From Nautilus pompilius (taxonomy: Eukaryota; Mollusca; Cephalopoda; Nautilida; Nautilidae): a DNA stretch of 64,000 nucleotides. Shown here one piece after another: positions 22,521 through 50,472 of the stretch. Made by a program: the position numbers and the translations under genes. Below the pieces are notes generated by a model, which searched no databases, had not been told where the DNA came from, and saw only the letters and a list, made by a program, of their open reading frames with translations. Positions within the stretch are counted from its first letter, which is position 1. Each line of letters starts with the position of its first letter. The stretch lies in assembly GCA_018389105.1 (NCBI GenBank), contig JACATO010000626.1:1116001-1180000 (forward strand), given 5' to 3'.

Positions 22521-22593
22521 GTGGGCACAGTTGTTCCTACTCACACCTATGTTTGTTGATTGCTGGAGCTCTATTACCATTTATTTATCTGAG

Positions 22594-22632
22594 ATGTTGC
22601 TGCTTTCACTTGTAGCCTTAGTGTTAATCTTG
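22594..22632 (+). CDS. MNNL-type membrane protein, exon 1 (signal peptide)
   Basis: ATG followed by 12 almost wholly hydrophobic codons (MLLLSLVALVLIL) ends at a GTAGGT donor at 22633 in phase 0. This is what is needed to join the phase-0 acceptor of the exon at 30389, continuing VPFGEC. The encoded stretch is a good secretory signal core, and Notch ligands also place the signal peptide in a separate first exon. The intron would be 7.76 kb. An alternative donor four bases later (GTAATA at 22637) shifts the frame and gives an immediate stop, so it is excluded. No transcript evidence; another first exon remains possible. Confidence 0.5.
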
Positions 22633-22639
22633 GTAGGTA

Positions 22640-25600
22640 ATATCCATTTTTACTTAATTTAATTTTGAAATTTTAAGTGTCATGTTTATATTAGGAGATT
22701 ATAACTTCATTAAAATTAGTAATAAATGCTGGCATAAAAGTAATTTGTGAACTTCATTTTATATAAAAGTATTCTCATACTGCACTAAGTTATTTGTAAA
22801 AACAAAAGTTAACATTATCATTTCAAAACCTTCTAGAAATAGTGAGTTAAAATAATAAAATTGCTAAAAAGAAAAAGAAAATACAATTCACATTTCCAAA
22901 TTAATTTTGTTCTGAAATTGTAGCTACCAAACAAGTTTATAAATTGGTAGACAGTGATACCTATTCATACTCCTGGTTACTGGCTTGGAAATCAGTGCTA
23001 GCTATCTCTGGTAAGGTTCCCAAGAGGACTAGGATGGTAAATCGGCATTACCACACCCCCCCCCCTGAGAGGACAAGTGAAGCCTTTTCACAGTTTGGTT
23101 GTAATTTTTGTGTTTGCTCTAAACTTATTTTAATTTAGGTAGTTACATATCTACAGAGGAAAATGATACTATGTTTATATTAATTGTTTTCTCTGTCTCT
23201 TGCTTGCTCCACTTTCAAATCTCCTCTTCAGGGGGTTTATTTGATAATTTAAAATATTAAAAAGTTGGTATGTCTTTCATGTATTCTGCAGATAAATTTT
23301 AAAAATAAAGTTCTTTAATAAATTCAATATAAACATATATATAAAATATACAACTTAAGATAAACAAGTGAAAATTTTGAGGTTCCCTGCCACATTGCAC
23401 ACTGCGTGTGATGAAGTAAATCTAATAACTGTGTTAATTATTGTAGCAAAAGCCTGGAGGTTGGATGCCCTCAGAAAGGTCATAACCCAGATGGTGGGAA
23501 GATTTGCATGCTCTGTCTACCCTGACTTCTGCTGACCCCGCTACTGTCTGGTTATCACATTCATTACCTTAACCTGCCAGTCACAACTTGCATAAATACA
23601 AACGTACAAATTTTAGAAGCAAATTTATTATTCATATTGCCTATTTGAGACAGTTTGTCATGTCTTTCAATGGTCACATTTATTTGTTTTTTGTTGTATT
23701 TCTTTTTTTGATTTCTTTCACATTACATATTTTAATACTTCTGATAAATACCTGAAAAAATGCATCATGCATCTTTTTGGCCATACGGTAGAAGGGTAGG
23801 TGTTGTGTAAACTTGGAATTTCTAAATTTTACTATTATGTAAACTGTCAGTTTGGTTGAAGTATCACTGATTTCTATATCCAGTATTCTTTGTGCATGGA
23901 ACAGATAGCAAAAAGTAGTCTGTTGTCATATGTTGAAATAACCATCACCAACAAAACTCACTTTGGTGTTTGTTGCTTGCTCTGCCTTCACCTTCACTAC
24001 ATCAGGTGATAATAGCTAAGATATACTTTATACTAAATTCAGGCTAAGTATCTGAGTAGCAACAATTTTACTTTGAACAAATACAAAATTTAGGTAATTT
24101 CTTTATTTTATAAAGATTACAAAATATTATGTTTAAAATTAATTAAGAATTTGTTACTTCTATAGGTCAAAGCTAATGTGAGAATTCAAATTGCCAGAAT
24201 GCAAAGCTTTTGGATAGCTAGTTTTATGTACAATAGTCTTTCCCAGTAGATACAATTAACTAGTGCACTACTATATTTTTTTTATACATTTCAAAATGAT
24301 TTTCCTATAATTCTAGGTGTGCCCTAATTGCAAATGTTTCCTATGTGCACAGTTTATGTATATTAACTATGTGAACGTTTGTAGAAGTCACAGATTACCT
24401 AAATTACATATCTGTAAAATAATATTTTAAAATTTATTTACTGTACATACTTTTCCAGTGTACATGAATATAGATTCAACTCAAGACCAAATAGTTTTGC
24501 TTATATTTAGGTACTAAAAAATGTTGTTTAAATAAAAAATTGTAAAAATGGTGACAAATTGGTTTATTTAATAGTCACAAGGTGTGGGAAGCCATGAAAA
24601 CTTATAGGAGGGCTCCCAGAAGAGAGAAAAAACCAATCCAATCACTATTACACTTGTCAGTAATTTGTTCCAACATTTAGCAATTTTGTTAGTAAATATA
24701 TATATATATATATTTCCTCATGTCTAAATATGCAGCTAATTTTAAATTATGATCCATAGTATTATCAAATTTGTCCTTGCCTGTATACTCAACTCTCCCA
24801 GTAAACAAAATCTATATTATGTCTTCTCTTAAAAATCTAAAATCCAAACTTGGTATAACTAATATCATAAGAAGGGAAATAGTATAATAAAATAAAGAAA
24901 AGGGTTTGAAGATAATCTTCTAAGACAAAATATATAAAAGCATATACACAGTATCTTTAAATCTGCTTTTGAAATGTTTTTGATCAGAATTAAGAATTTT
25001 GCATGAAAGATCTTTTATTCTCTTTCATTTTGCATGTTTTTTACATCACTATCTATGACTATATCTTTATGTTTGTATTTTTATAATATTCTTAATATGT
25101 ATTTTTTGTTTAAATATACTAAAAGTTTAATGTGAACTATAAAAATTTGGAATTAAGCATTGCTGAGAATAGCAGATATTTACAAAAAATTAGTTATTAA
25201 AAAAAATCTTTTACAGATAAATGGTGCTGCAAGTATATAAAACACACATTCATGTTTCTTTCATTTCATACAAAATTAGTGTTTGTATTGTAATGATAGA
25301 TATAATATTCACCAAAGTACTAATGTTAACAAAGAGGGCAAGAGTTAAGGTTGGGACTCTTTAATTATCTGTGCATGCAGTAGAACTTGGTTGAGGGGTC
25401 TCAATGGCCAACATCAGTTCTTACAAATTAAATTCAAGATGAAATACTTACAGAAACCAATGGAAATTTAGGAATACAAATGATGGGGGGGAAAGGGGAG
25501 CAAGTTAAACCAGACTCATTTTGAATAATTAGTTTTCTAAATGCAGATATAACCAAATAGTTCATTCTCAGAAGCAATCAGAAGTGTTTAACTTATTTCC

Positions 25601-28600
25601 ATCTAGCTGACAAAATAAAAAATGATAAAATATCATGGTTAGCAATGAAACATTTGACATCTGTATGGTAACAGAAAAAAAAACTGTAAGTCTCATTAAA
25701 TGCACCAGTGTATAAATAAATAGGCCACATGCATATCATCATTAACTTAAATCATTGAGTGTAAACCAATTTCTTTTAGAAGCAAAGAGCCTAAAACTAC
25801 TACTATCATTTCATCATAACATAAGTCTTGAAAATTAACAAAAGAAAACAACTGTTTTCCTTTCTTGATATCATTACAAGTTGCCTGTATTTTTCCACAG
25901 GCAGCTTTCAAACATTCATGAGAAATATAAGAAATAATACAGAGCAGATGTTCAGATGTTTTAATTGTTTTAGGAATGGAAGAAATTAAATATACAAAAT
26001 AAACGTTGCAATTCTTAAAACTGGTGATAACTATTGGTGGCTAAAACTAAGGTGACACACTCTGTCTGGTAGTCAAGTTAGAGATGATTCATGTATCTAT
26101 GTTGATCATGTTAGAACAGAGAGAAAGCAGGTGAAAAGTCACTACATCTTATCGATTTACATAAATTTTAAAATCAATTTTGAACCTTTTCATATTAACT
26201 ACTTTTGTTTTTCTTTTTATGCATTTTATTTAGGTTACAATTTAAAATGTCCATTAACCCTTTTGGCCACACACACAACGGCCTGCCTGCCTACCTGTTT
26301 TCTCTCTGATTATTGTTTTTTGTTCTCTTTTGGATTTTGCTACAAATGACATTTTGTTAATATGAAGAATTTAAATTGTCTTAAATGCTGAAGTTAATCA
26401 GAAAGTTTTTTTTAATTACAGATTACTGCTGCATAATTTTAAAAAATCTTACTATTATAATGCAATTTTAAAATTTTGTTATATTTAAAGCACAATTAGT
26501 AAAGTCAATGAAAAATCAATTTTTTCCATAAGTTCCATAAAAAATTATACTATATGGCACAATAAAGTCTCAAGAACCCATTGGTCTTTTGTTCTAAATG
26601 CAAAATATACATTAAACAACCCATTAAATGAAAAAGAGAACAATAGCTTCTGCTTGGATGAGAAAAGAGAGATTTTTAGCATTTTTGATTCTAGTAAACA
26701 ATATACTTAGTTATGCATGGGAATTTATAAAGTGGCATAAAATGTTTTACAAATATGCAAACTATAAAAATTCTTGTCTTATATTTTGCAATTATTATTT
26801 ATATTATAATAAAAATAAGAACTAACTAAATATTGCAAGGTTAGACATAATAAAATTAAAGCATGAGTGAATATGTATACTGATTTTGGAATTCTTGATT
26901 ATACTTTAATAATTGGCATTGCTTTCTCCTTATATAGAAGATTTCTCTCATTCACTAGAAGGACACAGCATAAAAGTTTGATAAATAAACCTTTTGATGC
27001 ATCTTTGAAATATGTAACATCTCTTCCAAGTGAATAGAATGAATTCCATTATTATTTAACCCCAAGAATCTTAACTTGTACATTGATCTGATACCAGATT
27101 TGAATTCCAGATGTTAAAAGTAGAGAGGTTTTAAAAATAATTAAGGGTTATATTATATATGTGTGTGTGCACAAAGGCAACTTTTAAAAATATTTATTAA
27201 TACCAGGGTGACAGTTATAAATTAGCTAAGCATGGTAATATCAGAAAATAATATTTAGTAATAAAAGTGTTAACGAGTAGAATAAATTACCAGCAAGTGT
27301 AGTTAATGGTGATTGCATATTTCTTCCCTGGGGCCCTTACGTGAGTCATGACTTGCTCCTTTCTCTTTGTAACTTCTAAATGAAAACTAAACTAAAATGC
27401 CCAGTGTTTGTAACAATAATCTCCAATCTCTGGCCACACCATACTTGTTAATGTCATTATCTCAGGTTGTGTTTCAACTACCCTGAAGCATTCATATTCT
27501 TTTGTTAGTATTCATGCCTCAGAAACAGTGAAAATAGTTTTCTTATAGAATATAATATAGCCTTTAAGCAAGTGGGCAAGTCCTTATAAATTTTATCACA
27601 GGCTGTTTAAAGTGTTTTTCTCCAAGTCATTAAGTCTACCAACCAACCACACTCAGTGATCAGTAAGCAAAGAAAGCTTCTAGACTACCATGAGCTGAAA
27701 TAAAGTATTCAAGTTCACAGAAACTTTCCATGTTCCTAAATTTTACATTTTTCATAACATATTATTAGAATTTTATTTATTTACATATTATTTTCATTAA
27801 AATGGTAAATATGGAAACAGGAATCAACAAAAGTTTGTAAAAGATCTATCTCTGGTTTCTACTGTTAATTTGAAACCTTCCCATAGTGTAACATTATGAA
27901 AACTTAATTACCTACAAGTCAGTAAAATATCTGCCAATTTTTAAAACAAGATAAATGCTAATTCTTTTGCTTTTTAACTTTTTTACTAAGTTTTTTTAGT
28001 GTGAACTCTTTCCAAAATTTGGTATTTTATTTTCCTTGAAAATTTTGCTTCATTTGCTATAATGACTTGATAGACAGAAACTGATTGACTAGTATGGCCA
28101 GGCTTTAGTTTGATGGATTTTCTGGACTGGCAGAAAAAATTAGTGTTTACATGAGGTTACTACACTATCTAAAGCATTGTGCAAAAAGAAGCAAGTGAGT
28201 AGACAATGCAAAAGGTGTATGTCAAAAGAGAGAAAAAAATTATCACACTTCAGACCATTATCACTGAAATGTAAAGGCAAAATTATTCTTCTCAGCAATT
28301 GCCTAGCAACTGACCTCATACTATATTGAGAATGGCTATGTTGATACAAAAGTGCAGAAAGGAGTGGTTGACATGCTAGGCCACCCAGAACGTGTCTGCA
28401 TAATTTGAGAACCTATCCAACATTTAAGTCAGGTAAATTAGAATTGCATATCATTTAATAAAATGTGCCCCTGTGTGTAGAAAGAATGATACTGGATCAT
28501 ATTCTGTCATCATGCAAGGTTTTATTTGGCCAGGTACATATAGTAACACAGCCAGGTTCTTGACAAGTTATGTCACTATGTATAAGATGCCAATTAAAAA

Positions 28601-30380
28601 GCAAACTCACAAAAGATATTGAGATAATAACTCAAAAGTATTTGTCAGAGAGTCTGACTAACAAAATCTGAGCATCAGAGTACAGATGTGAAGTACAGTC
28701 ATCCATACTGGGTTACTGAACCGAGCAAAAGATTGGGAAGTTGCATCCAATTTGATTGTCAGGAAAACACCCAGACATAGTTCCCAGTTCAATATGTGCC
28801 AAAGCCTGCTTTTTCATTGAACTTAGTACCATCAGAGTCAAGAATGACGGGACAGCATCAGAAGTATCCTGATTTGGTTAAAGATCTTTCAGAAATGTTT
28901 GATTCTATGCTGTAGTTATTGGTGAAAGAAGCATTGTTTCCTCATCAATGTATAGTCTGTTAAGAGAGCTTGAATCGAAATATAGCTCTCAGAAAATAGG
29001 AACATCTGCCAAGAAAGTATCCAGTTGGATTTGGTGGAAAAGGAATGTTAAGGAATAAATCTTAAAAGTGGAATATTCCTACTTAATTGTGTGACCTTTA
29101 AGAACACTATAAATATCCAAAGACAATATATGGTATAGACCTTTCATTTGAAACAGATTAGCAAAAACAGCTGTGGGAGTCCTGACCAAAGTATGGCTTG
29201 GTTCCTTAAGAGTGTAAGGAAGTTAAAGGCCAAAACATTTGTCTGAAGGAAAGGATCTTATTTTCTCTGCTGTCATAGTACTTGTGAGCTTCTTTTCATA
29301 CTTTTGAGCATTTTGTTTCATCTGCCATATTGATTTGATAGCCAGAAGTTTTGAAACAATCAGTAATAATCAGAACCTAGTCATGGCATTATTTTTAAAA
29401 TTATCAGCAGACAAAATCCAGATTCAGATAGCATACAGTCTATAATTATTATGATGTTTGTAAGGAGTTGAATTAAATCCCAGTATTCAATACAGCTCTC
29501 CAATTTAGTACAGTACATGTGGTGAGGATTTTTTCTGTGATCATAGGGTTCAAACATCATTTTAATTATCATAATCTTAATTAATAACACTTCTATTGCT
29601 GCTGGTCAATTACTTTGATCTTCTATTAGAAGCACTTAGATAACAGAAATAAGATTAGACCTCAGTGTTTATTTAAATAAGTGAAAACTACAACAGCAGT
29701 GGGACATTTGGGGAAGTAAGAACTTAGCAGTTTATTAGCTTATATGGGAAGAGTAAAAAAACCACCACAACAATGTTCTGTGTGATCAGTCTAACATCTT
29801 CTCTAAGTACTCAGGAAATAAAAATATAAAGCAAAACTTGATATTATAACAGATTTGCTAAAGGAATTGTATAGTAATGGTAATAAAGATATTGTTTCCT
29901 GTTTACTTCTGGGTCACAAATACAAAGATTGATGATGTTTTGCTACAGAACTCACTGCATTATCTATAACTGAGTTAGTAATTTTGTCACAAGTAGAATG
30001 ATGTGTTTCCGGTATCTCGAGATACTGAAAACACATATATAAAGTTTAATGTTTCCTATCTTAAAAGCAACAACAAAAAATTCCAAACGCATTCATTAAA
30101 GAAATATATTAATTGAACCTTAACAATACATTATTTTGAATATTTGCAAACTTCAGGAAGTATAAATAACTATGTATTGTTAACAGAAAGAAAGAAATTA
30201 TTTCCAACTATTTGGGGCCCCTAACATTTTCAGTTAACTCCTATTATATGAAATTTTAGCTTCAATTATTATGCTAATTTATTTTTAAATTAATGTTTAA
30301 AGTTAAATGACTTTTACTAGAGTTCCAATATTTTCAAAACCAGCTACTCTCAAATTGTTAAGATTCTTGCATTCATTTTG
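22640..30380. other. Intron 1 of the MNNL-type gene, no supported coding sequence
   Basis: AT-rich sequence with a (TA)n microsatellite near 24699-24711 and a repeat copy at 29931. Somewhat GC-richer patches near 22990-23090 and 23440-23560 (the latter after an acceptor-like ttattgtag) look like worn repeats; neither gives a frame with family resemblance. The stretch 28100-29350 also looks like old repeat, unidentified. Confidence 0.4.
29931..30042 (+). repeat. Interspersed repeat, copy 2, with a collapsed palindrome
   Basis: This copy shares ttttgctacagaactc, aactgagttagta and gtcacaagtagaatga with the repeat at 15611. At 30001-30036 it ends in a nearly perfect 36-bp palindrome centred on tatctcgagata. 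The inner ~50 bp of hairpin present in the first copy is absent here. It lies in intron 1 of the MNNL-type gene, about 350 bp before its exon 2. Confidence 0.75.
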
Positions 30381-30388
30381 TCTTACAG

Positions 30389-30555
30389 GTGCCATTTGGT
30401 GAATGCAATGGAAAATTATCTGTTGCATTTGTGCGTTATGAGAATATTGCAAACTTAATTTTTGATGGCAGCTGTTGTGATGATATAGGTAAGAAAGAAA
30501 ACTGTGCCAGCTTTTGTGATCTGGTATTTGAAGTCTCTGTGCATGGCTTGGACAC
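30389..30555 (+). CDS. MNNL-type membrane protein, exon 2 (N-terminal half of MNNL/C2-like domain)
   Basis: The exon lies between the acceptor tcttacag and the donor GTGAGT at 30556 and ends in phase 2. It encodes ECNGKLSVAFVRYEN, then FDGSCCDD, then ENCASFCDLVFEVSVHGLD. The layout beta-strand, GxCC, CxxxC, F.V matches the MNNL domain at the N-terminus of Delta and Jagged/Serrate ligands (usual form: G-C-C, then C...C..FF.VCLK). The double Cys and the following Cys pair are kept, while the usual Cys of VCLK is replaced by Ser. In Notch ligands this domain folds as a C2 domain that binds lipid and supports receptor activation; whether this one does is inference. Confidence 0.8.
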
Positions 30556-32100: not shown

Positions 32101-32159
32101 TACATTGTACAATGCATTAGTACTTGCTTGTTGAGCCTTTAGAGTAATTAGTTCTCAGT

Positions 32160-33080
32160 TGCCTTTCTCAGTAGCCATACAGCCTCAATCATGTTCATAT
32201 TAGGACCTTGTGCAGGCCAAGGCATCTTTGTGAGTGTTCCATCAGCCCCTCTACTTTCCAGATAGTTTTTCACCACATTGGTTGTATGCTTGGGGTTGTT
32301 GTCATGTTGGATGATGAATCCCTCTCAATGAGATGTCTTCTTGAGGTAATGGCATGAAGGATAAGAATCTTCCTGTATCCAACACCCTTGGCTGATATGC
32401 AGCCTCATATTTGTATTGACCCAGCCCATGCTTCACTATAGCTGTTGTACATGGACTGTCTTACCACTTTCTGGTCCACCTTCAAAAAATTACCATTGAT
32501 TATCGCCAAACAGTTCAAACATGGACTCATCTGTAAAGAACATCTTATTCCAGGTTTGGTTACCCCAGTTTCATTTCTGATGCCAACTTCAGCCTTGCAA
32601 TTTGGTTGCCTTCCTTTAGCACAGGTCTTTTTGGCAACTACACATCCACATCTAATGAGACCACTTTGCTCTAATGCATATCTTACTGTTCTTGAAGAAA
32701 TGTTAATATCCGTACTTGCAGCTATGTCATTTTTAAGTTCTCCACTGGCTGACCATCTACCAAGTAGAGGCCACACCCTGCAGTACTTAACATCACTTTT
32801 GGAGAGTTTGGGCCTTCTTCCTCAACAATGTCTATTGTCAACAGTATCAGTTTTGTGGTATTCTCTTCAGAGTCTTGCATACAGCTTTTTCTGAAAATGT
32901 GAATTTTTGGTTGCAGTCTGCTGCATGGAGTAGCCATCACTAGCTAAGAATTTGATTTCTATTTGCTTGTCATGTAGTATTCCCCCCCCCCCACCAGGAG
33001 CCATACCGTTCATCATGTTCACTACACCACAATGATATTCCCTGTCTATACTCGTATAGTCCATCTGTAGGTGTTGCATT
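32160..33080 (-). pseudogene. Tc1-type transposase remnant
   Basis: Read on the - strand, the order is: a helix-turn-helix piece with INISSRTVRYALEQSGL (~32710-32660), then NSYSEAWAGSI, GCISAKGVGY (~32400-32370), IIQHDNNPKHTTNVVKNYLE (~32320-32260) and MPWPAQGPNMNMIEAVWLL (~32225-32170). These match the Tc1 landmarks VRR.L...GL, VWGC.S..G, the catalytic D in QDN.PKHT, and WP.QSPDLNPIE.VW with the catalytic E. Stops and frame changes make it inactive. The inverted ends were not identified, so the span is that of the coding remnant. It lies in the intron between exons 2 and 3 of the MNNL-type gene. Confidence 0.85.
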
Positions 33081-33800: not shown

Positions 33801-33921
33801 AAATGGGATCTCAGGCAGACGTCCTCTTCAGAAGCCAGTGAATAGCAACCAGATCTTGTTTCCAGTTGGAGAACAGCAGGGTGTTCTAAATCCCCTGAAT
33901 TTCAACTTCCAAAAATGGCCA
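33801..33921 (+). CDS. MNNL-type membrane protein, exon 3
   Basis: The acceptor tgtattttag completes the Thr codon left open by exon 2, and the GTAAGT donor at 33922 leaves phase 0. The 40 codons end in NPLNFNFQKWP. This corresponds to the conserved part of MNNL domains that reads NPI.FPF.F.WPG just before the last strands. The Trp-Pro is then followed by Gly from the next exon, as in the family. The central stretch, with GRRPLQKPVNSNQILFPVGE, is not conserved. The intron before this exon is 3.2 kb and holds a Tc1 remnant. Confidence 0.82.
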
Positions 33922-35054: not shown

Positions 35055-35209
35055 GGCCAAGTAACCATCAAAATATCCGTGTATGACCAGGATGAGAATG
35101 GTGTGTTAAAACTGGTGGATCTATTTCGTTTTTTGTTTAAAATGTCTAAACCAACAAAGTATCATGTGTTTCAAGACCTGAATGGAAAAAGAAAAATTCA
35201 TCCTACAAA
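35055..35209 (+). CDS. MNNL-type membrane protein, exon 4 (end of MNNL/C2-like domain)
   Basis: The acceptor ctctattatttaag and the donor GTGAGT at 35210 bound 51 codons plus two bases (phase 2). GQVTIKISVYDQDENG directly continues WP from the exon before, matching the G.FSLIVEAWDxD strand and Asp-rich loop of MNNL domains. The rest, KMSKPTKYHVFQDLNGKRK, occupies the place where Jagged and Delta have the loop before the last C2 strand and the DSL domain. Acidic residues DQDEN resemble a C2 Ca2+-binding loop, but binding is not shown. Confidence 0.85.
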
Positions 35210-36134: not shown

Positions 36135-37139
36135 ATTGGGTGTGATTTTCAAGTATGACTACGACAAAACTTATTTTGGTGATGACAGTGGTACAGACTG
36201 CCTTCTTAATCCAACCAATCCTGTCTGTTTAGGACTGCAAACATCTACTCTGCAGACTGTCTCTGTTCCAAATCACCTGTTCTCGCTTACAGAGTCCACA
36301 AAAATGATATCTTCACCTAAAACAGCAATGAGCTCTCACAGGTTTACATCTGACATGATGGACACATCTCAAGTAGAACTTCCAACTATATCTACACACA
36401 GCAGCAGAAGTGAGAGCAAGACCTTTAATTTAAATGTTACCACTAAAACAAAAACGGAGATTACTCTGTCGCAAAACAGTAGCATTGCTAAAAGGAAAAC
36501 ACTCAAAGTTTCAAGACCATACTTTCGGAAAACAACAAAAACTAATCACTTATTTAACACTATTAGTAATTTGAAAATTTCTGAAAAAAGAACAGTTAGT
36601 GGAAGTGTACCTCCTCTTCTGAATGTGCAGAGCAGCTCGACTACAGGTGATAGCTCCACCTTAAGTTTACCTTACAGGTTTATTTCCATACAAAGCCAGA
36701 CAGATAAAACACTGGGATTAAAGAGCAGCACAACTGACAACAGCATTGCTAAGGAAACTTCTCTTTCAAAAATTATCAACATATTGTTACAACTGAATTC
36801 CTCTAAAATGTTGACAAAAATCAGGAGAGAAAAAATTATTACAGTTCCTTCAAGCAGCTTCCCAGTAGATCTGTCCACAGAAAGAAATAGAAAAGAAAAG
36901 TCAAAATTATTCTCTCTGGTTTATCACCAATCAACTTTGATTTTCAAGAAAAATAGCACAGTACTTAGTGAGAAAGCTACAACTGAGTACACCACCAAGC
37001 CAGTGACCAAATATGGCCATCATATCAAGGAGTGGATATTTGTGACAACTAATTACTGGCCAATTCTTGTTAGCATAGTTCTTGTGGCTCTCACACTTAT
37101 TGTAGGAATTACATCCTTCATCTACCATAAAAGAAAACA
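36135..37139 (+). CDS. MNNL-type membrane protein, exon 5 (decayed DSL start, Ser/Thr stalk, membrane segment)
   Basis: A 1,005-bp exon follows a T-rich acceptor and is in frame with exon 4 (the split Lys is completed). It opens with LGVIFKYDYDKTYFGDD. This aligns with the end of the C2 domain and the first residues of the DSL domain, where ligands have Y.V.CD..YYG..C. Here the first DSL Cys is Tyr and GxGC is GDD. No further DSL or EGF Cys pattern follows, only two Cys (residues ~183 and ~192). About 260 Ser/Thr/Lys-rich residues with four N-glycosylation sequons come next, and then one membrane helix around YWPILVSIVLVALTLIVGIT (residues ~468-491, 37054-37125) and a basic stop-transfer YHKRK. 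The type I topology is clear. The exon ends CA before GTAAGT. Confidence 0.85.
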
Positions 37140-39169
37140 GTAAGTAAACCTACATTAGCGGCTATGATTGCTGACTCATCAATAAAATAATTCATCAAGT
37201 ATATTTCAATAAATAATGTATGCTTTTTCTAATATTGATACCTTGTATACATCATATACAGAGCAGCAAAATGATATATGTATGAAATACAGAATATTTC
37301 ATTGGCGAGTCCAGTTATGGCTGCTAGTGTATTTCTTTGCAGTTCTTTTTATCCACACTTAGAAACTGTATTTGTCCTGTTTGTTATTTTCTTATTTTTA
37401 TCATATTGAAAACTTTGTGCACCCCAAATATTCATTCATATTATGCATAAGCAAGTTGCTTTTAGGCATATCCAAATAAAAGTCTGATAAAATCTGTTAG
37501 CATTTAGTCGTATCACAATGATAAGATGCCCAGAGCAGTGTAGACAAAGAGATTGGCATTTTGTATGTAGCAAGCCCTGTCATCTAGGAAGACTATATAA
37601 AAACATACTGCAACCAAGTTCTATTACCACACCCCTCCTCCTGAGATAATCAATTGAATTACCTTCCTGACCACATATATGTTGCTTAACATATCAAAGT
37701 TCCTGCAAGTGCAAAAGGGTTTATATGACTCAGCTGAGAGTGGAAAAACAAAATGTTTTATGCTCATTTGTTACTCCTTTTCTTAAGGTCATGACACTAT
37801 TTTCTCACTCTCCCCTTTTTTCCCCTTTCGCACACACATCTATATTTTTTTCTTAAACTCTTTCCCTTGCTATGTTACTCTACCCTGGTAAAAGTTGCCC
37901 TGATATGGATAATTTATTTTTTTCTTCTTTTCTCTACTAACTTTGAATAATATGAATCTAAGCATAAATTTCTTGAGGAAAAAGATCCCATCAATATATA
38001 CATTATATATTTTTCCATTTTTGCATGGAAAGAAAAATACAAGTATCTAACCCTGACTTAAAACAGATTATGTCAGATGGAAACTTGCAATAAATGGAAA
38101 TGCACGCAGTTTGAAATATTACACTTTTACATGGTAATAGCCTGACTATAACTAGATTATCAAATAAATAATGAGACAACACTTCTAGAATTATATATAA
38201 GCATGTTCATTTTAGTACTGTGCTGAATTAGGCAATGTTTACCTGATAGTTGGCATGGCCTTCCTTTTCCTTTAGTACACACGGATGTGTCACGGATTGT
38301 CTATATATTTACAGAGAACTGTCAAAAGAAACGCTAAACTCACTTCTGTCTCAACTCTTTGTAGATGATATTTAGAAAGCATTCTCAGAATTTTATCAAT
38401 GATTGTCAAGCTTAAAGGGCTCTTAGAACTTCCAAGCCATTAGGTAGTTAGTTTAACACAAGTTACCTAGAAGTATTCATGGTAACTGATCAATTGATCA
38501 AACAAATGTCATTGCGATCCACTCTTAGGAATCTATACAGCATACGCTCTGACCTTTTTCCATCATTCAGAAGATGAGAAATACCGATCTGAACCTGGTG
38601 GATCTTCATCCTTAAAACAAAAAACTTATGGACATATCAAAGTGCTGCAAAGTATGACACAAAACTGCCACAGATAGTATGCTAAGGTGACCATTAAAAC
38701 TGATATAATGTAGCATACAGATGCCAAATGAGAACACAGCTCCCACATATACATGTCGGTTTTCCATAACACATGCCTCATCTCATTAACATACTGGAGA
38801 CAAGGAGTAGAAATAATGTAACATAAATTGCTCAAATAACATAACCATAAGCAATAGCAGATCAATGTTCAAACAAAACTGTGTAATAACTTCAATCAAT
38901 CAAAACTTGTTCATTTTGATAAACTAAACTAAACAATTGTATAAAAACAATGTTCCCAAAGTTAAGTTCAGTTCAATAAATGTTTTTAAGCTACTATATA
39001 ATATAATCAGCTATAATGTTTTTGGTTGACCCCTTGACTTCACTAAATGTTTAGCTGTAATCTCTTGCTTTAAACATTTTTACTTGTTTGTTCACTGGGT
39101 AATTTGTACACTTCACTTACACTGCTGCTGTACAATATGAAAGGATCTAGTTTGTTATCTTGACCAATT

Positions 39170-39870: not shown

Positions 39871-39890
39871 TTTAATGAAGCTAGTAGAAC

Positions 39891-42800
39891 TAGGGATATG
39901 TCGATTATTGAAATAGCAGATCACCAATTAATTGGCCAAATAGCAAAATCCATAACAGAATTTTTGGCCTCCTGCTCCTATTTGAAAGCCAGAAATTTAT
40001 TTCTGCATGCACTGATGCACACACACTATCATCACTAGCAGGAAAATAAATCTCACTGGGATAGATATATACATGAAACTTCACCTGTCTAAATTTTATT
40101 TATTTACCCAAAATTGTAACAATAATGATTTATTTACTAATACAAATTAAAGAGTAAAAACACACTGAATAATTGCTCAGTTCAGATATGTATTCAGAAC
40201 TTATGATATACTGCAACAGTCTGCCAATATATTGTTTTGATTCAAGAAAAAAAAAAAGATACATAGAGATATATACTTTCAAAAAGATTTAAAAGATCGT
40301 AAAGCTAAGAGATTACCATTGTATGGAGGAGTACCTATATTGTATTTCATTATTATTAGAATATTTTATTGCAGTATGTTAAGTTGTAAATATCAATAAT
40401 TTTTCACAAAAAAATAGATCTAAAACTTTGTCCTGATTTTGGAATATGCATGTTTTGCATATTTCAATGTAAACAACCAATATAACCTTAAAATCTTATT
40501 TTCATGATATGAAAAGCCTCCTACTGTTTTATGTTTAATTATTCTTTCTCAGTAATATTATCTGTGTTGACTTAGGAATTGCTTATTCACAATTGTTCTT
40601 TAATGTGATTGTTGGGAGTGTACTGTGATAAGAGTCAAGTGGCTTCTCCTAGGAAAGGTAAACATTGATTTTACTGTAGCTGGAGTTGTTAACCACAGTG
40701 GCCTTTGTTAGTGACAATACAATGATTAATTAATCATGGGTGTTTGAGAACCTATATTGTGGTTGTTCGTTTTTTTTAAAAATTAAATATTGGGTGTTAT
40801 CAGTTTTTTTCTGATGCTGTTTAGCTGAGGAATTAGAAGTTAACAAGCTGAACACTGACACACTGTCCATTTCTGGATAAGTGCCTACACACATTTTTTA
40901 CAGGTAGAAGTGTCAAGAAAAAAGCTGTGTATGGAATTATTTTGTGATACAGAAAAATTCCATCAAAACTGAATGCAAACTTTGCAATCAAGAAATCTCT
41001 CAAGGTGGAAAAACTGCTAGGACATTTACAACTATTAACATGATAAACCATTTAAAGGTGAAACATGACCCAGAGTATATTGCAGAAATGGTTCAGCAGA
41101 AAAAGATTCCTGTTCCTACAAAAATAAAACTCAAAGAATCCAGGCCAGACTGTAGTAAACAAATAACTATGGAGGAATCCATTAACAAGAAAAAGTTGTG
41201 GGGGCATCAGAAATTCTCAAGCCACAGCCATACATCTAGGAATAGGAAAGATTATTTCTACAGACTTATAACCTTGCTCAGTTGTAACAAACATTGTATT
41301 TAGAAAACTATTTAATCACTTGTCTCATAACTATAATATACTACACAGTAGTTTTTCAATTACACTGTGATACATACCAAATATGTACAGTGCTATTTTA
41401 AAAAACTTCAAGACATGCTACAAGAGAAAATGATAATTATAGCAGCACAAAGAAACATTTGTGCAGCTGATACTGCTGGAGCATTTCTTAGTACAAATGG
41501 TCATTGGCAAGCATCTGATATTGAAAGGCACAGAACTATTCTAAATGTGTTTCAATTTCCAGAATTACATACAGCCAACTGACCACATAAGCAAGTGCAT
41601 TTTTGATGGGATGAAGAATATCGAAATACATTGGATAAAGTCTATTTGGTCCTTTGGAACAATACTGCTAGTGGTTGCTGGACTTCTCAAAATTTGATTA
41701 CTATCACTGTTTTGTTTGATCCATACTCTACAACTATACATTAATGATGGCATATTCAGCCAACAAGCAATGAATTGTTTTCTGTATTGACTGAGAAATA
41801 GTCAGCAATTTCCATCATTCTCTTGCTGTCACACAAAACAGGTTTCTATAGGATGTGTCCATTTACTGGAATAGTTCATGTTCTATGCCAGAATATAATA
41901 CTGAACAAAGAGAGTCAATCATGGCATATGTAGTAGACCATAATATTCAAAATCTAACTACATATCAATTGAGCTAGCTGAAAAATTTGTTTGCCTTTTA
42001 AAGCCCTTTGAAGAGATCACAAAAGTTGGTACTCAGAAGAATGCAACAATTTCCATATAATCCAATCAGTTTTAGTTATATAACTCTTCCTAGATAAAAC
42101 TACCACTAATACATAGAAATCTTTACAACTAGGTCAACTAGAAGCGTGCAAATGTGCTTACACAAGTAAATAAGAAACCCTGTATTTCCAGATGCTTAGA
42201 CCCTAACTTTAAACTGAAGTTCCTGAGTAAAGATGTAAATATGGACAGAATAAAGCATTGGTTGATAGAGGAAATTGAAGGAAATGAAAGATGATAAGAT
42301 TAAGCAAAGTCCCAGGAAAAATGTGATCATAGACTCTGGTAGAAGTTGATGATTAGACATGCCACTAACATCAGCTGCTAAATCAATAGTGGCAGTTCCT
42401 GAACTTTGGGACTGCTATGAAAATTAGCAAAAAGCTGCCATCTCTTCAGAAAAACAGACTATAAATTCTCAAAAAATAATATAGAAAAACACCACTGCTG
42501 CAGAGAAAGAGATTGAGGAATATCTTAACTTGCCCTTATTACCCAGGCATGAAGATCCTTTGTCATGGTGGAAAGAAAGTACTTTCCACTTCAAAAAGCT
42601 GAAAAAAGTGGGGCAAATGAAATTGAGGCACCTCCATCTTCCATAAACAATGAATGATTTTTTAGCACTGGTGGACATATATACATACATATGAAAAAAG
42701 AAAAACTCTCACTGCAAAAAGTGGTGAAAAGTTTGCATTATTCTTTTATAATTTAAAAGCTTTTGACAGGCTTTCATAATAGTTTTCAATTTTTAATCTC

Positions 42801-43609: not shown

Positions 43610-44039
43610 GGTGGAACTTACTTCATTGTTATCAGACAACCATAGTACTGCTTACATCTCTCTTCTGCTTCTCTATTGATACCAAACTACTAAACCTTTG
43701 ATCTTAGCTTCTGTTTGGTGTTGGATATACTCAGGCATTGATTAACTTAGCAGACAAACTTATTATGGTGAGAAAAAAGAGATGGAAATATGACCTGATG
43801 TATGACTCAATGCTTGAACTCAGTCACTGAAAAACAAAGAGGCTATATTTTTTTTTAATGACAACTCCCAAATTGGAAAAATTGTATTTTTTTCAACAAG
43901 TATAAAATTTAAAATAGTATCTGAAAATTCAGATAAAACAAGTCAAGCAGAGTCTATTAAAGTTACTGATTAATCAGCAGGATTTTTATGCCTCGTATTC
44001 AACAGATGACGAGATGTTATTCACACCTTTTAGTGTCAG

Positions 44040-44280
44040 TGAGGAACCTCATCATCGGGTAAATGCCATCAATAAAATTACTTTCAAAACTAGAATATTT
44101 TTAATTGGTAGTAATATAGTGAAGATGCAGGTTGACTGTGGTGCGAAATGCAATGTTTTACCTCCATGAATGCAGATCAAGAAAGTTAGTCAAAAGCTAA
44201 TCATGTACAGCAAAAAGACCATACAAGTGCTTGGTGCATGTCAGCTTAAGTTGTACATTCCTAAAAGAGAGGAAAACTGT
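44040..44280 (+). pseudogene. Retrotransposon aspartic protease remnant (gypsy type)
   Basis: The frame through NIVKMQVDCGAKCNVLPP (~44107-44168) shows the retropepsin active-site phrase, with DCGA in place of D[ST]GA. Downstream are KKTIQVLGACQLKLYIPKR (~44210-44270), matching the I.VLG...L flap and beta-strand region. A short piece beyond (~44465-44540, CLEVDEKMIPVVMHS) resembles the linker before reverse transcriptase. There is no recognisable reverse transcriptase after it. An inactive fragment of a Ty3/gypsy-like polyprotein. Confidence 0.6.
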
Positions 44281-44726
44281 TCATCGTTGTGAAAGGCAAC
44301 AACATACCACTCCTTGGTTGATGTGCTGCTCAACAATGGAATTAATTAGAGTACAGTAAAACAACATTCAAGGTTATAAATCTTGATTCCAAGAGAATAA
44401 ATGGATCAGACCTGTTTAAGCAACATACTACAGAGTACTAATGATACTTTTGAAGAGCTAGGATGAATAAAAGTTAAACTATGTTTGGAGGTTGATGAGA
44501 AAATGATCCCAGTGGTTATGCACTCATGGAAGGCCTATATCACTGAGAAGTAAAATCAATGAGTTTAACTGGCAGGAAAATCAAAGCATCATGCTATTAC
44601 AAGTGTTTTCTGAGGTTGCAACAGAGTGTGTGAACAATAATGCCAGTGAAACCATTGAGACACACTGAGATGTTAGGAAACTACATATTTAAATAAGGAA
44701 TCCTTAGAGTTATCAGATCATGTTAA

Positions 44727-45048
44727 CAGACATGCCAACATTATAGATCCTAAAATCGGGAGAAAATATTATTTAGTGATTTGCTTAGTATAGTATCTCC
44801 CCGAGGCGCCCCCATGCTGTCTGCGATGGAACGGTTGGTGTACTGTATATATATATCTACGGAGCAAAAAATAATATTTTTAGAATTTTCAAGTATAATT
44901 TCTACCAATTATGTGTCATTTCAAAAAATTTAATGTAAATATTAAGAAAATCAGGAGTTTTTACTAGATTTTAAAAATCAGGCGGGAGAAAAATTAGAGC
45001 TTTAAAATCGGGAGTCTCCCGCGGGAATCGGGAGTGTTGGCATGTCTG
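44727..45048. mobile_element. 322-bp MITE with 14-bp perfect inverted ends and 6-bp TSD
   Basis: The ends are CAGACATGCCAACA and its exact complement TGTTGGCATGTCTG. TGTTAA occurs directly on both sides (44721-44726 and 45049-45054), so the target duplication is 6 bp (a TTAA core with TG). Subterminal aaaatcgggag phrases recur near both ends. There is no coding. A 6-bp duplication does not fit hAT (8), Tc1 (TA) or standard piggyBac (TTAA). It interrupts the gypsy-like remnant. Confidence 0.8.
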
Positions 45049-46382
45049 TGTTAACTGGCCATCCAAACTGAGTGACTCATTGAGAACACTCATTGTTATC
45101 AAGAGACCCATGAAGGAAAATTGTAACTATCTGAAAGACAACTGTCATTGGCAGTTTACTGTAAATGTCAAGATGCATATCAAAAATGGTGAAGTATGAG
45201 GTCAAACTTGGTTAGAGTATTTGGCCATTAAAAAGTAGTTTTGCTTTGATGCAATATTTTTAGTTCAGTTAATATTGCTAGTAATGACTATAGTGATACA
45301 ATCATGAAACCTCAAAGTCCACTTAGAAACACATAAGTGAACAGAACTCACAATCAGACTCAAATGCAAGCAAACATATGATGCCACACATCAAAGCTGT
45401 TAAATGCAGAAAGTCGCCACTGGCAGGAAATCCTAGAATGTTGACTGAGGTATTTGACAATTACTATGTGCCAGTATCTAGCTTTTGGATATTCCAGTGA
45501 CATACTGTATATAAATAAGGGAAATTATCTAAAACTAGTGGAATGATTGCAAAACAATGCTTTATGGCAGAAAATCTCAGAAAAATTGTAAAAAACAGAA
45601 ATTCAAAACCATTACTTGGAAAAAGTTTTCAAAATGAATTGGTACAAATTTTATCTCAAGCAGTTCTAAACAAAACTCAACTTCCTAAATGATGCAAAAT
45701 ATTGTTTTATCATTGCTGATTGTGCATGGATGTGAGTTACACTGAACAAATGTTGATTATTATACATTTTTCCAGACCGAAGTGTAGCATTGATGGCATT
45801 GCAAAGATGAAAATACATCAAAATTTTTTTGAATTCAGTAACATTGAAGACACTTCTGGAAAAGAGCTTACAAATTCTATTTCCTCAGAATGAGAAAATT
45901 GTGGTTTTCTTCACAATATGAAAAGTCAAGGGTACAAAGATGGGTTGAATATGAAAGGGAAGAAGTCAGGCATTCAGGAGAGAATTCTTAACATGTATTC
46001 ACAAGCTTTCTTCATTGCTTAACTTAGTTGCAAATGATGCTGCAATGTCAACCAGGATGGTGTTTTTTTTTTTTTTTCTAGAAATCCAACAGATGTCATT
46101 TTTTATAGGTCCACTCATCCTTGGGTAGTCATGATACAACATGAAAGAAAACTTTAAAATCTTTGTAGTACAAGATGATCAAGTAGAATCGATGTTAGTC
46201 AGGAGAAATCTGTAACACATCATTCATACTTGCCAAAGATTCACCATGTTACTTAATATGAAGTTGAAATTTTTGGAATTAAAAACTTCACCATAAATAT
46301 GAAAAGCAAGATACTGCAAAGGCAAGCTGCCATTGGGATGTTGGGAAAAACAGTTCACTATCTTCAAGATTATTATTCAGAC

Positions 46383-46960
46383 AATGGATTTATTAATGCA
46401 TTCACTGAGGCAAAGGAGACAGCTCTCAAACTGGACACAGACCCAGTGTGACATCTTTTCATCCATGGTAGAAAATGCAAATCAACTTTGAGTATGCAGA
46501 GAAACCCATACATGATTTTAAAATGCAATTCAAAGTTGCATTCCTTAATTGCATCTGTGATACATCATTTCATTCAGTTGTGGAAAAATTTCAGCAGTTG
46601 TATCATTACAACAAGTATTTTTAGCTCTAGGACAAAGTAATTTAATTACAAATTCCCAAAAGCAACTTCTAAAGCTTTCCATGGATTTCATTTGCTTTTA
46701 ACAGATAACTCAGATGAAGCTAAAATTGACTGACTGCATGAACTTGTTACTTTTTCTACCAAAATAATACAAAATATGGCACCAACAAAAGTAGTGCTAC
46801 ATTAATTAAATGAAAAAGATTTTGCTTCAAATGTAGCAGTTGCACTTTGAATACTTTTGACTTTATCCATCACAGTTGCTTCAAATAAGCAACGCTTTTC
46901 GAAAATTTAAATTAATTTAAAACTATTTTCAGTCATTAGGAGGAAATCTTGGTTGGCTTG
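46383..46960 (+). pseudogene. hAT transposase C-terminus remnant (ZMYM1-like)
   Basis: INAFTEAKETALKLDTDPV (~46390-46450) matches the EARE.A..L...P segment of hAT transposases. After frame changes, a stretch with FHSVVEKFQQLYHYNKYF (~46570-46622), DFASNVAVAL (~46830), ILLTLSITVAS and QRFSKI (~46850-46905) gives the dimerisation region (usual form NV.VALRILLTLPVTVASGERSFSKLK). The several stops show a dead copy. It is of the same broad lineage as the element at 20792 but on the other strand and a different part is kept. Confidence 0.7.
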
Positions 46961-48841
46961 GAAAATCTCCATCAAGCTTGAGAATGTAATGTATTTAAAG
47001 TACAATAGCCTTTGTCATAATTCAAAGTACGATGGCTTACTTTTTCATACCCTCACCAGTTTAAAGGCAAGAAAACAGAACTTCATGCAATATTGGTGCA
47101 TCTTTTGCTACCATCTGAACTTTTTTCATTTTATTTCCATTTAAGATATCATGTTCAAAAATGTGTTACAAATTCCACTAGCAATCATTGAAAGGTAATC
47201 AAAAACTATTGCTGGCAACACAAAATAACCTAAGCCTAAAACCTCTTGCTAACACTGCAGTTCACTACCTAAACTAAGCAACAGCTCACAGGGATGGAAA
47301 GAGTGACATCTGAAAATTCAGTTGGGTCAGATGCTGTGCTCTCCCCAAATTATTACTGTCCAGGTTACACATCTGTCAGTCCAGCATCAACCGCAAGCAT
47401 GGCATTACATTAGATGCTGCCCCCCCAAGCTCAAGATTTCTACTTTATCCAGTCAGCATATTTCTAAACTAGTCTAAGCATTATAATTCTCACTTATTTA
47501 GTGGAGTTTAGTAAGCTCCTACTACATACTTGCACTAATTCCATTACTGATAAGATTACTTCAATACTCTTAATAAGTTAAATATTTCTTGTACTTGTGT
47601 AATCTTAAAATTTTCTTCAGATATTGTAGTGCATTTAAATAAAACATGAATTTTATATTCAATTTTCTCAATGATTTTCAAAGGATTAAATACTGTATGT
47701 CCATGCCATGTCTATGATCTATCTACTGCTTTTCTTGAAGGAAGCACAATGGCCATCTACATAAATGCTATGGAAGCTAAACATTAAAGAAAATGATAAT
47801 ATATGCATTTACACCTTATTGGTTGATAGTAGTAAAAAAGTGGAATCCTACTGTTTAATCATCACCAAGGTACCGTTTTCTATGTATAGTCTATGAAAAA
47901 AATCATTGTATCTTAAAAGATTTATCTGCTAGCATTTTAGATTTGGGGCTGCACATGTTTTTCTACAGGTAATTGTGATGATTATGAAATACTTTAATAT
48001 TTTTCAGCTACACGGAGGTCTTAGGATCTATAGGAACTGGAAACTCTGTCATTATCTTGTTGCAACATGCCTTTGTTCTATTGTTTGTTTTGAATAAGTT
48101 TCACCAAGACATTGTAGCATACAAATCTGTCTGCCTAATAAACAATAGTTCCAGCAAAATACTCTTCATGCCTTTGGAAAACCTAGTAGAAATATGTAAT
48201 GTCATTGATAAAATAGTTCTGTATATCCTCCATCTGCACAGATTGATTAACATTTGCTATGATACTTATTAGTTACTCCATACAGGCTTTATTTCTGCAA
48301 GTTTTACTGTGTTCCAGCAAAAGACCTTTTATGACTTTCTTGATCAAGCCATAAGTCTGAGCCCTCCTTCTTACCCATATTCACTGATTTAACATTCTCT
48401 TACATATACTATTCCTCAGAAAATTTATCTTTTTCACCTCCATTCTTGACTGCTGTCATTTCACTTTTTAAATGTGTTTCTCCAGTAACAGTATCATGAC
48501 TCCATTCAACATCTTTTTCTGTCATTATGGTCTCAGTTAACTATGCCACTACACCCTACATTGTTCCTTTTGTGTGGCTAAAAGCAACGGATTTGCCAAA
48601 AGTTAGAATTATACACACAAATTGTCAGCCAAAATACTTGATATTTGTTGAGATTTGAATCCAATGCACAGCTATAAAAACCCTGCCATCAGCCTATGTG
48701 GATGGCTTTCTAAAATAATGGTGATATAAACTTATAAAACAGCAGCTGGTTTTGATAAGAAGAATTGTAATGAAAAAAGTTACATTTGCCTTTGTATATC
48801 ATCACCATTGGTTGATATTGGGAAATTATTTTTTTCAATTA

Positions 48842-50253
48842 CAGTGGTTTCCAAAAGTTAAGCATCAAAGAACAACAAAAATTTTCAAAATGATTCAAGT
48901 TTTTATTGTTCAAATGATCAACACAAACTCCTCTTCAGGTAACAAATTTTATCAAAAAATATGCAAATTACAAATAATGTAAAGGTAAATAAGCAGGATT
49001 AAGACAGAAAATGAAAATTATTTCTAACAAAGAATGTAAACAAAATAAATTAGAGGTAGTCAATAGCCCCCCCCCAAAAAAAAACAACACATAGCTTACA
49101 GCATGGCTTTGCATGTTGCATATATCCCCATCAATGAAAGTGGGAAATAAAGTACATTGCTTTTCAGAGTAATTTGTAATTTTCAGAGTGATCTAAGATG
49201 GAAGCAACACATCTTCCTATGGCATCCCAAACATTCACAATAGCATCTAGCTCAGGATTGAGTGCTGACCATATCATATAAGTGATTTTTTGGATTTGAA
49301 GATATTGGTCAGTTGTGTGTGCCTTTAGTGAACTAGTGTCATTATCCATTAGAATAAAGTTATCTACAATTGCACCTGCATATGGTCTGACAGAGATCCA
49401 GAATTTTGTCAGTATACCTCATCGCAATCATGATGCCTCCCTTTAACACATGCAGATATTATGTTTACTCAAAGAAAAATTTCCTGCCTAGACCATTACA
49501 CCATCACTGCAGCAATCTCTTTCCATGTTTATGGCTGATTGCATTTTCAGCATTTCTTCCAGATGAGCTGCACCATGATTGAAGGCTAAATCTTGACTCA
49601 TCAGTAAAGAGAACATGGCTCCAGTCATGGGTGTCCAAGCAAAGTGTTCACAGCACCAATTCAATAACTCCCATTTATGGCAGCACATCAAGGGGATATA
49701 CATCATGGGTCATCTCACAGAGCCCTCTTTCATGCAGCCTCTTGCATATGGTTGAGGCTGATACCAACCTCTCTAGAAATGCAGAGAGATGAGAAGTTGA
49801 ACTGATGTCAAAGTTCTGATTTTCCAAGCTAAAAATGATACATAGCAATCAACTACTGGAGTTGTGACCAATGGTTGATTTTGAACTAGTTTTTGGATGA
49901 TATCTCCATGGACTTGAAATTATCTCTAAGGCTGAGAAACTGCACTTTTGTTAACATTTAACCATTCTGCCACCTGGGTCTGTGAGCTTTCCACCTTAGA
50001 GAATCTGCCAAATAAGTACAATTACAAATTTGTAATGTTACCATTCAAAACAAATCTAAGAGCCAAATTGATAATGAACACAAGCCAGCCTTTTTGTATT
50101 TTTATACCAAAGCTAATTTACCTGTTTCTTCTGGAGTCATTTACATTTCTTGGATAGAGTTATTTTATATGAAGTGTGTGTTGGACATCTGGTAAATAAA
50201 AGTTTAACCATTTTGCTGATTTCCTTTTCTTATAACTTTTGGAAACCAGGAGG
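48842..50253 (-). mobile_element. Tc1-type element, 1.4 kb, with inverted ends
   Basis: The left end CAGTGGTTTCCAAAAGTTAA follows TA, and the right end read inward contains CTGGTTTCCAAAAGTTATAA before TA. These are the ends of Tc1 elements of the CAGTGGCCTCCAAAAGT type. Inside on the - strand are the piece CCHKWELLNWCCEHFAWTP (~49680-49620, usual form HR..RL.WA.EH..WT), MFSLLMSQDLAF and ALNPELDAIVNVWDAIGRCV (~49265-49205), matching PDLNPIE.VWD.LGR. Stops and frame changes show decay. It ends 89 bp before exon 6 of the MNNL-type gene. Confidence 0.85.
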
Positions 50254-50342
50254 TAAAAATACTTATGCTGAACATTGTTTCTTTAAATTAAATTATGTAA
50301 AATAAACCTTGTATATTATGTTAATAATATTTTTTCTTTCAG

Positions 50343-50472
50343 AGAATTAGAGCAAAGACAAGATATCTACAATGTAACTCCAAAAGTATTAAAATCTTTT
50401 ATTCTCCCAATCCCTAAAGAGAATGGGATGACTGGAAAAACAGAAGTGGCATTGGAAGTGGAACAAAAATAA
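50343..50472 (+). CDS. MNNL-type membrane protein, exon 6 (cytoplasmic tail and stop)
   Basis: The acceptor ttttttctttcag ends at 50342. The first base completes the Gln codon split by exon 5, and 42 codons follow up to TAA at 50470: ELEQRQDIYNVTPKVLK, then a Pro-rich stretch and EVALEVEQK. Together with HKRK from exon 5 the tail is about 47 residues. It has no PDZ-binding end like those of many Delta/Jagged proteins and no motif I recognise. The exon is supported by phase, acceptor quality and an open frame, but the intron before it is 13.2 kb, so support is weaker than for exons 2-5. Confidence 0.6.

What the first reader, a model, noticed from the sequence alone, without database searches (positions are those of the whole stretch)
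22594..50472. Notch-ligand-like surface protein with an MNNL/C2 domain but no DSL or EGF domains
Seen: exons at 30389, 33801, 35055 and 36135 join with matching phases into one frame. The encoded order GSCC, ENCASFC, NPLNFNFQKWP, GQVTIKISVYDQD follows the MNNL domain of Delta and Jagged. Known: in ligands this domain is always followed by a DSL domain and EGF repeats. Here one continuous 1-kb exon goes from the end of MNNL straight into a Ser/Thr-rich stalk, a membrane helix and a basic tail. Inference: a membrane-tethered MNNL-only protein of ~538 residues, which might bind lipid or Notch without activating it (a decoy or modulator), or have an unrelated adhesive role. I know of no described protein with this architecture.
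Basis: partly seen in the sequence, partly recalled or inferred. Interest (0 to 1): 0.88.

Follow-up and report, generated by a model that had tools for sequence, protein, structure and literature searches.

The report
Notch-ligand C2 head on mucin-like stalk
In a mollusc genome, a gene descended from Notch ligands keeps their membrane-binding front domain but has swapped the Notch-activating parts for a Ser/Thr-rich stalk anchored in the membrane, and a second gene has the same layout, which suggests an adhesion or lipid-sensing molecule that has left Notch signalling.

Summary
Exons at 30389, 33801, 35055 and 36135 join in phase and encode a diverged MNNL/C2 domain followed in one exon by a Ser/Thr-rich stalk, membrane helix and basic residues. 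Pfam MNNL scores just under cut-off (21.8 of 22.5 bits), but a profile of four DSL-bearing relatives from the same genome gives 62.5 bits against at most 7.5 for 4,000 shuffles. None of 47 DSL matches in the genome search lies on this contig. A second gene (contig C374) has the same layout. Intron phases match DSL-bearing relatives, so both derive from Notch ligands. The strand-2 cysteine is present in 10 of 10 DSL-bearing sequences and the loop cysteine in 9 of 9 seen; both stalked genes lack both. That pair matches the disulphide supporting the Notch EGF12 site. The window gene keeps aspartates matching Jagged-1's calcium ligands. Best explanation: a Notch-ligand C2 domain freed from Notch and redeployed as a stalked lipid or adhesion receptor. 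A DSL vestige remains. No transcript or binding data were available; no orthologue was found, by limited searches. Host possibly Nautilus (inference). New variant of a known kind.

The parts
22594..22632 (+). putative signal-peptide exon (MLLLSLVALVLIL; upstream in-frame ATGs at 22519 and 22549), donor phase 0
   Evidence: only phase-0 donor with a hydrophobic ATG-led stretch found by a crude scan of 14000-30380; not proven
30389..30555 (+). exon A: first part of MNNL/C2 with the four cysteines that match the beta1-2 loop; donor phase 2
   Evidence: aligns with exon A of relatives
32405..32821 (-). 138-aa open frame inside intron A-B, not part of the protein
   Evidence: no Pfam match at E 0.1; Tc1-like by eye only (recalled)
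33801..33921 (+). exon B: loop 2-3 region up to the WP turn; no cysteine; donor phase 0
35055..35209 (+). exon C: VYDQDEN...VD (calcium-loop aspartates) and most of the rest of C2; donor phase 2
36135..36240 (+). start of exon D: last C2 strand and degenerate DSL start (LGVIFKYDYDKTYFGDDSGTDCLLNPTNPVC)
   Evidence: alignment to DSL exons of relatives
36241..37053 (+). exon D: Ser/Thr-rich, Cys-free stalk (271 residues)
37054..37139 (+). exon D: YWP, membrane helix and basic KRK; GTAAGT donor at 37140 overlaps the in-frame stop at 37141-37143
   Evidence: C374 has a GTAAGT donor in the same phase after its basic residues
50343..50472 (+). tentative cytoplasmic-tail exon (stop 50470-50472)
   Evidence: good acceptor and fitting phase, weak coding score; no convincing counterpart found in C374

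Best explanation
The gene encodes a type I membrane protein made from a Notch ligand that lost its Notch-engaging parts: signal peptide, MNNL/C2 domain, a short DSL remnant, a Ser/Thr-rich stalk, a membrane helix and a short basic tail. Shown by sequence: MNNL homology; descent from the genome's DSL-bearing ligands (shared intron phases); no recognisable DSL or EGF; absence of the two cysteines matching the EGF12-loop disulphide; retention of the four beta1-2-loop cysteines and of aspartates matching Jagged-1 Asp72 and Asp140; a second gene with the same layout. Inferred: the protein reaches the cell surface; the stalk, probably O-glycosylated, holds the C2 head away from the membrane; the head binds phospholipid or glycolipid on a neighbouring cell, vesicle or matrix in a calcium-dependent way, so it works as an adhesion or lipid-recognition receptor and not as a Notch activator.
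For: Profile of 4 DSL-bearing relatives: window protein 62.5 bits, C374 36.3, best of 4000 shuffles 7.5. The six-gene profile (four rows bear DSL) finds Delta 7alk (8.9e-27) and Jagged-1 4cbz (6.9e-18) among solved structures. Intron phases 2/0/2 agree in 6 of 6 genes parsed through A-D, borders set by eye. 9 of 11 MNNL loci have a DSL match downstream on the same strand and contig; C602 and C374 have none among 47 matches. Strand-2 cysteine present in 10 of 10 DSL-bearing sequences, loop cysteine in 9 of 9 where that exon was seen, both absent in both stalked genes. Jagged-1 calcium is held by Asp72 and Asp140; D140A/D144A strongly reduces liposome but not Notch binding, and the Notch-binding mutant F207A still binds liposomes like wild type (PMC3888931, passages). 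The loop 2-3 disulphide supports the EGF12 site (PMC5538765, passages). C374 exon D open for 1567 codons, 0 of 1000 shuffles open.
Against: Pfam score is below cut-off for the window protein (21.8 against 22.5 bits), though C374 passes (26.9). Single-sequence searches of the PDB found no relative. C374 has Asn where the window gene has the Asp72 equivalent, and that place is Arg in C2021 and C714 and His in C298, so the aspartate is not a general rule. In one study liposome binding in a Notch-containing assay was abolished when Notch binding was blocked (PMC5538765, passage), so lipid binding may depend on Notch in some settings. C298, which has DSL, lacks two of the beta1-2-loop cysteines, so cysteine loss also occurs in DSL-bearing genes, though at other places. 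Lipid binding, expression and surface location are untested. Which cysteines pair is taken from homologues.
Confidence: 0.6

Rival explanations
1. Notch modulator: the C2 head still contacts Notch EGF12 weakly (site 1) and, lacking DSL, blocks or titrates Notch in cis or trans as a decoy.
For: The C2 domain carries site 1 in canonical ligands (PMC5538765, passages); three loci with strong MNNL and DSL matches coexist in this genome (C1006, C2021, C714).
Against: DSL is degenerate; the cysteine pair supporting the site-1 loop is absent in both stalked genes; a single DSL mutation, F207A, already reduces Jagged-1 binding to Notch to background (PMC3888931, passages). A search for the Notch NOD domain gave nothing and the tool calls that uninformative.
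Confidence: 0.16
2. Protein-protein adhesion or mucin-like surface protein: the C2 fold is kept only as a scaffold for a new protein partner, and the stalk (about 270 residues here, about 1520 in C374) is the functional part, for example a glycan barrier.
For: Stalk length and sequence differ greatly between the two genes, and a frame near the DSL-bearing gene C1361a carries about 1,490 residues of mostly Ser/Thr-rich repeats after EGF repeats.
Against: Calcium-ligand aspartates and beta1-2-loop cysteines are retained in the window gene; the window stalk has no repeated 5-mer and few prolines (3.7%).
Confidence: 0.15
3. Incomplete gene model: an internal donor in exon D, or alternative exons, links this C2 to DSL/EGF exons, so it is an ordinary ligand with an extra isoform.
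For: No RNA data were available; the genome search reads exon by exon and scores only its best candidates, so a split or weak DSL could be missed.
Against: None of the 47 DSL matches at E<=10 lies on C602, 1.42 Mb; no EGF or DSL motif by pattern on either strand of C602:1106001-1210000, while the same patterns find DSL in 5 of 5 and EGF in 4 of 5 relative stretches; the C374 layout is the same.
Confidence: 0.04
4. Decaying or silent gene copy.
For: Fast divergence: 28% identity to C374, long branches.
Against: Four intact exons, GT/AG splice sites, long open frames in both genes against 0 of 1000 shuffles each, layout kept across deep divergence.
Confidence: 0.05

Closest known systems
Delta/Jagged (DSL) Notch ligands, MNNL/C2 domain (PF07657; PDB 7alk, 4cbz)
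   Same: N-terminal C2 domain, the four beta1-2-loop cysteines, WP turn, calcium-loop aspartate, single membrane helix, gene ancestry
   Different: no intact DSL, no EGF repeats, strand 2/loop 2-3 cysteine pair missing, Ser/Thr-rich stalk instead
Divergent mollusc DSL ligands (C1361, C2550, C1582 here; Batillaria attramentaria BaRGS_022067, P0001)
   Same: MNNL sequence; for the loci here also exon layout and intron phases. P0001 was the one protein found with the family profile, E 1.8e-53, among 483 candidates
   Different: they carry DSL (P0001 and several loci also EGF) and six MNNL cysteines
Sponge AmqDelta4 (PMC3482393, passages)
   Same: MNNL-containing membrane protein without EGF repeats
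   Different: keeps the DSL domain
Choanoflagellate proteins with one of MNNL or DSL (PMC6040629, passages)
   Same: may include MNNL without DSL
   Different: known from transcriptomes; the passage does not say which domain or give a stalk or membrane helix

Membership tests
DSL Notch ligand (Delta/Jagged) | MNNL/C2 domain at the N terminus | tested here: met
   62.5 bits to the relatives' profile; Pfam 21.8 bits, just below the 22.5 cut-off
DSL Notch ligand (Delta/Jagged) | DSL domain | tested here: not met
   no DSL match in the joined protein at E<=10; none of 47 PF01414 matches on contig C602; only a degenerate start of about 20 residues
DSL Notch ligand (Delta/Jagged) | EGF repeats | tested here: not met
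   no Pfam EGF in the joined protein; no EGF pattern within C602:1106001-1210000
DSL Notch ligand (Delta/Jagged) | strand-2 and loop 2-3 cysteines (Notch site 1 support) | tested here: not met
   both absent here and in C374; strand-2 one present in 10 of 10, loop one in 9 of 9 DSL-bearing sequences seen
DSL Notch ligand (Delta/Jagged) | single-pass membrane anchor | tested here: met
   19-residue hydropathy 2.69; next best elsewhere in exon D 0.64
DSL Notch ligand (Delta/Jagged) | binds and activates Notch | not testable with these tools
   needs protein and reporter assays
Calcium-dependent lipid-binding C2 domain | calcium-ligand aspartates matching Jagged-1 Asp72 and Asp140 | tested here: met
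   FC-D and VY-D in the alignments; residue roles from PMC3888931; placing of the numbers on the Jagged-1 sequence recalled
Calcium-dependent lipid-binding C2 domain | binds liposomes with calcium | not testable with these tools
   bench assay
Mucin | tandem Pro/Thr/Ser repeats | tested here: not met
   33% Ser+Thr but 3.7% Pro and no repeated 5-mer in exon D

The most novel reading that the evidence does not exclude
A distinct class of animal cell-surface receptors, 'stalked MNNL proteins', in which the Notch-ligand C2 domain has lost both Notch-contact sites and become an independent calcium-dependent lipid or glycolipid recognition head, showing that the lipid-binding half of Notch ligands can stand alone as a biological function.
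Probability: 0.43. Interest if true: 0.85.

Novelty: new variant of a known kind. Interest (0 to 1): 0.7.

Why it matters
Notch ligands carry a lipid-binding C2 domain whose role is hard to separate from Notch binding. Here evolution seems to have done the separation experiment: DSL, EGF and the site-1 cysteine pair are gone, while the lipid-binding apex stays. Three studies identify Delta by MNNL plus DSL (PMC8166818, PMC5356439, PMC6040629; passages), so such genes would be set aside. They give a natural test of C2 function without Notch.

Tried and rejected
Single-sequence phmmer against the PDB gave 0 hits and one unrelated hit at E 1.2. The 5.8-billion protein search with the full protein scored 7,999 candidates, none at E <= 10. 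The same search with alignment A2 scored 8,000 candidates with none at E <= 1, but it also missed Batillaria P0001, one of its own rows, so stalk words probably swamped it and it says nothing about orthologues. Structure prediction was not run: its rule takes proteins read letter for letter from DNA, and a spliced protein is not clearly allowed, so I did not submit one. The NOD search for Notch gave nothing and the tool calls that uninformative; the LNR and NODP searches did not complete. C374's signal exon was not found in phase 0, and no convincing cytoplasmic exon. C117 (two stops inside, 18.1 bits) and C131 (15.2 bits), both below cut-off, were dropped from the MNNL count. The tree joins the window gene with C374 at 93/94, but both branches are long.

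Papers: passages only (plus what the search listings show) for PMC3888931, PMC5538765, PMC8490980, PMC8257504, PMC8166818, PMC10970066, PMC6040629, PMC2770060, PMC3482393, PMC5356439, PMC5684314, PMC4335385 and PMC11843878; all others as search listings. 'Not described' rests on searches (0 papers; 17 of 17 listed; 20 of 51; 15 of 6,368; 3 of 3; 10 of 11,566; 9 of 9; 40 of 65) in an open-licence library only.
Full report
What is there. The window lies at C602:1116001-1180000 of a 727.6-Mb genome. Exons A 30389-30555, B 33801-33921, C 35055-35209 and D 36135-37139 have AG/GT borders and join in one frame. Exon D is one open frame of 334 codons; shuffles that keep dinucleotides have about 20 stops in that frame, and 0 of 1000 are open in any of three frames. 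Both outer exons are tentative.

Is it MNNL? Pfam MNNL matches residues 21-124 at 21.8 bits (E 1.5e-4), a little under the curated 22.5. The genome search lists 16 MNNL matches, ten over cut-off at ten loci, and the window gene's exon A below it at 15.4 bits. A profile built from four DSL-bearing relatives only (C1361a, C1361b, C2550, C1582) gives the window protein 62.5 bits (E 8.7e-18) and C374 36.3 bits (E 9.5e-10); the best of 4000 shuffled copies reaches 7.5. The six-gene profile, which includes the DSL-bearing rows, finds Delta, Jagged-1, Delta-like 1, Jagged-2, Delta-like 4 and Serrate among solved structures; ten of its 22 listed sequences have E of 3e-12 or better and all ten are Notch ligands. 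The window sequence alone finds none of them.

Where it comes from. Nine of eleven MNNL loci (the ten over cut-off plus the window gene) have a DSL match downstream on the same strand and contig; that each pair is one gene is inferred from order and strand. The two without are C602 (this gene) and C374. The search scores only its best candidates and reads exon by exon, so it can miss a split or weak domain. In the six genes parsed through exon D (window, C374, C1361a, C1361b, C2550, C1582) the introns A-B, B-C and C-D fit phases 2, 0 and 2, and an acceptor before exon A fits phase 0; I set these borders by eye. A phase-0 donor one codon after the conserved W is also present in C1006, C2021 and C714. 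Exon D starts where the DSL exon of the relatives starts, and its first residues (LGVIFKYDYDKTYFGDD) align with LTLKITVYCADNYYGVD; the first DSL cysteine is gone but a YYG-like motif remains. Descent from a DSL ligand is therefore the straightforward reading.

A second gene with the same layout. C374 has exons A, B and C in the same phases, then an exon (9769-14472 on C374) open for 1567 codons, 0 of 1000 shuffles open, with a Cys-free stalk of about 1520 residues (22% Ser+Thr, 22 sequons), a membrane helix (hydropathy 2.03) after a YWP like that of the window gene, basic residues, and a GTAAGT donor in the same phase. C374 passes the Pfam cut-off (26.9 bits). The two heads are 28% identical and group at 93/94 in a ten-row tree with long branches. 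On C1361 a 1656-aa frame downstream of the MNNL and DSL exons, same strand, holds EGF repeats followed by about 1,490 residues that are mostly Ser/Thr-rich repeats (whole frame 32% Ser+Thr), so long stalks may occur in the DSL-bearing family too; that it belongs to the same gene is inferred.

How it may work. In Jagged-1, calcium is held by Asp72 and Asp140; the D140A/D144A mutant keeps Notch binding but has strongly reduced liposome binding, and the DSL mutant F207A loses Notch binding but binds liposomes like wild type (PMC3888931, passages). The window protein has Asp at both matching places (FC-D and VY-D); C374 has Asn at the first, and C2021, C714 and C298 have Arg, Arg and His. Placing the residue numbers on the Jagged-1 sequence is from recall; the alignment is. 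[quoted passage not shown] Eight DSL-bearing sequences aligned over this region (seven here plus Batillaria P0001) have six cysteines. Two more DSL-bearing loci were added later: C566 shows the first five (its exon B was not fetched), and C298 has four, having lost two of the beta1-2 set but kept the strand-2 and loop ones. So the strand-2 cysteine is present in 10 of 10 and the loop cysteine in 9 of 9 seen, while the window gene and C374 lack both and keep the four of the beta1-2 loop. Drosophila Delta and Serrate have two stabilising disulphides in the beta1-2 loop (PMC8490980, passage). Both Notch-contact regions thus look lost or destabilised while the apical lipid-binding loop is kept. 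I infer a stalked C2 head that binds membranes in trans or cis, not a Notch activator. Against this, one assay found liposome binding abolished when Notch binding was blocked (PMC5538765, passage). The assignment of the missing pair to that disulphide follows the papers and the alignment and was not shown by a structure.

Taxon. Fourteen matches to the mollusc haemocyanin domain PF14830 fall in two clusters of seven, and the genome size is close to the 730.58 Mb reported for Nautilus pompilius (PMC8257504, passage). That the domain is confined to molluscs and that Nautilus has seven units per subunit are recalled. The identification is an inference.

Novelty. Three studies whose passages I read identify ligands by MNNL plus DSL; one discarded matches with unexpected architecture (PMC8166818). 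Known oddities are an EGF-less sponge Delta with DSL, cnidarian DSL-only genes and one cnidarian MNLL gene with three DSL domains (PMC2770060), and choanoflagellates with one of the two domains. I found no described stalked MNNL-only membrane protein in the searches named under Tried and rejected, whose listings were partly capped and cover open-licence papers only. I rate it a new variant of a known kind.

Noticed in passing
G000:C1361:90000-95200 (L061), minus strand: A 1656-aa open frame with EGF repeats followed by about 1,490 residues, mostly Ser/Thr-rich tandem repeats, downstream of MNNL and DSL exons on the same strand: perhaps a DSL-EGF ligand with a giant stalk.
   Followed up: partly
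G000:C566:1269412-1273128 (L026, L028), minus strand: Two further DSL matches lie among EGF repeats in one 1066-aa frame, besides the DSL exon at 1277857: perhaps a multi-DSL ligand.
   Followed up: partly
G000:C298:2792820-2793014 (L011): A DSL-bearing locus whose MNNL lacks two of the beta1-2-loop cysteines but keeps the strand-2 and loop ones, the reverse of the window gene.
   Followed up: partly
G000:C117:5630228-5630347: MNNL-like fragment with two stop codons inside, below cut-off: possibly a dead ligand copy or chance.
   Followed up: no
window 20962-21303 -, 40908-41303 +, 52970-53308 -, 56589-56954 -: Mobile-element remains: hAT dimerisation region (just below cut-off), BED zinc finger, DDE_Tnp_1_7 transposase piece, CENP-B-type DNA-binding piece.
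   Followed up: partly
window 19461-20600, minus strand: A 379-aa open frame without a Pfam match at E 0.1, next to another unmatched frame at 19116-19460.
   Followed up: no
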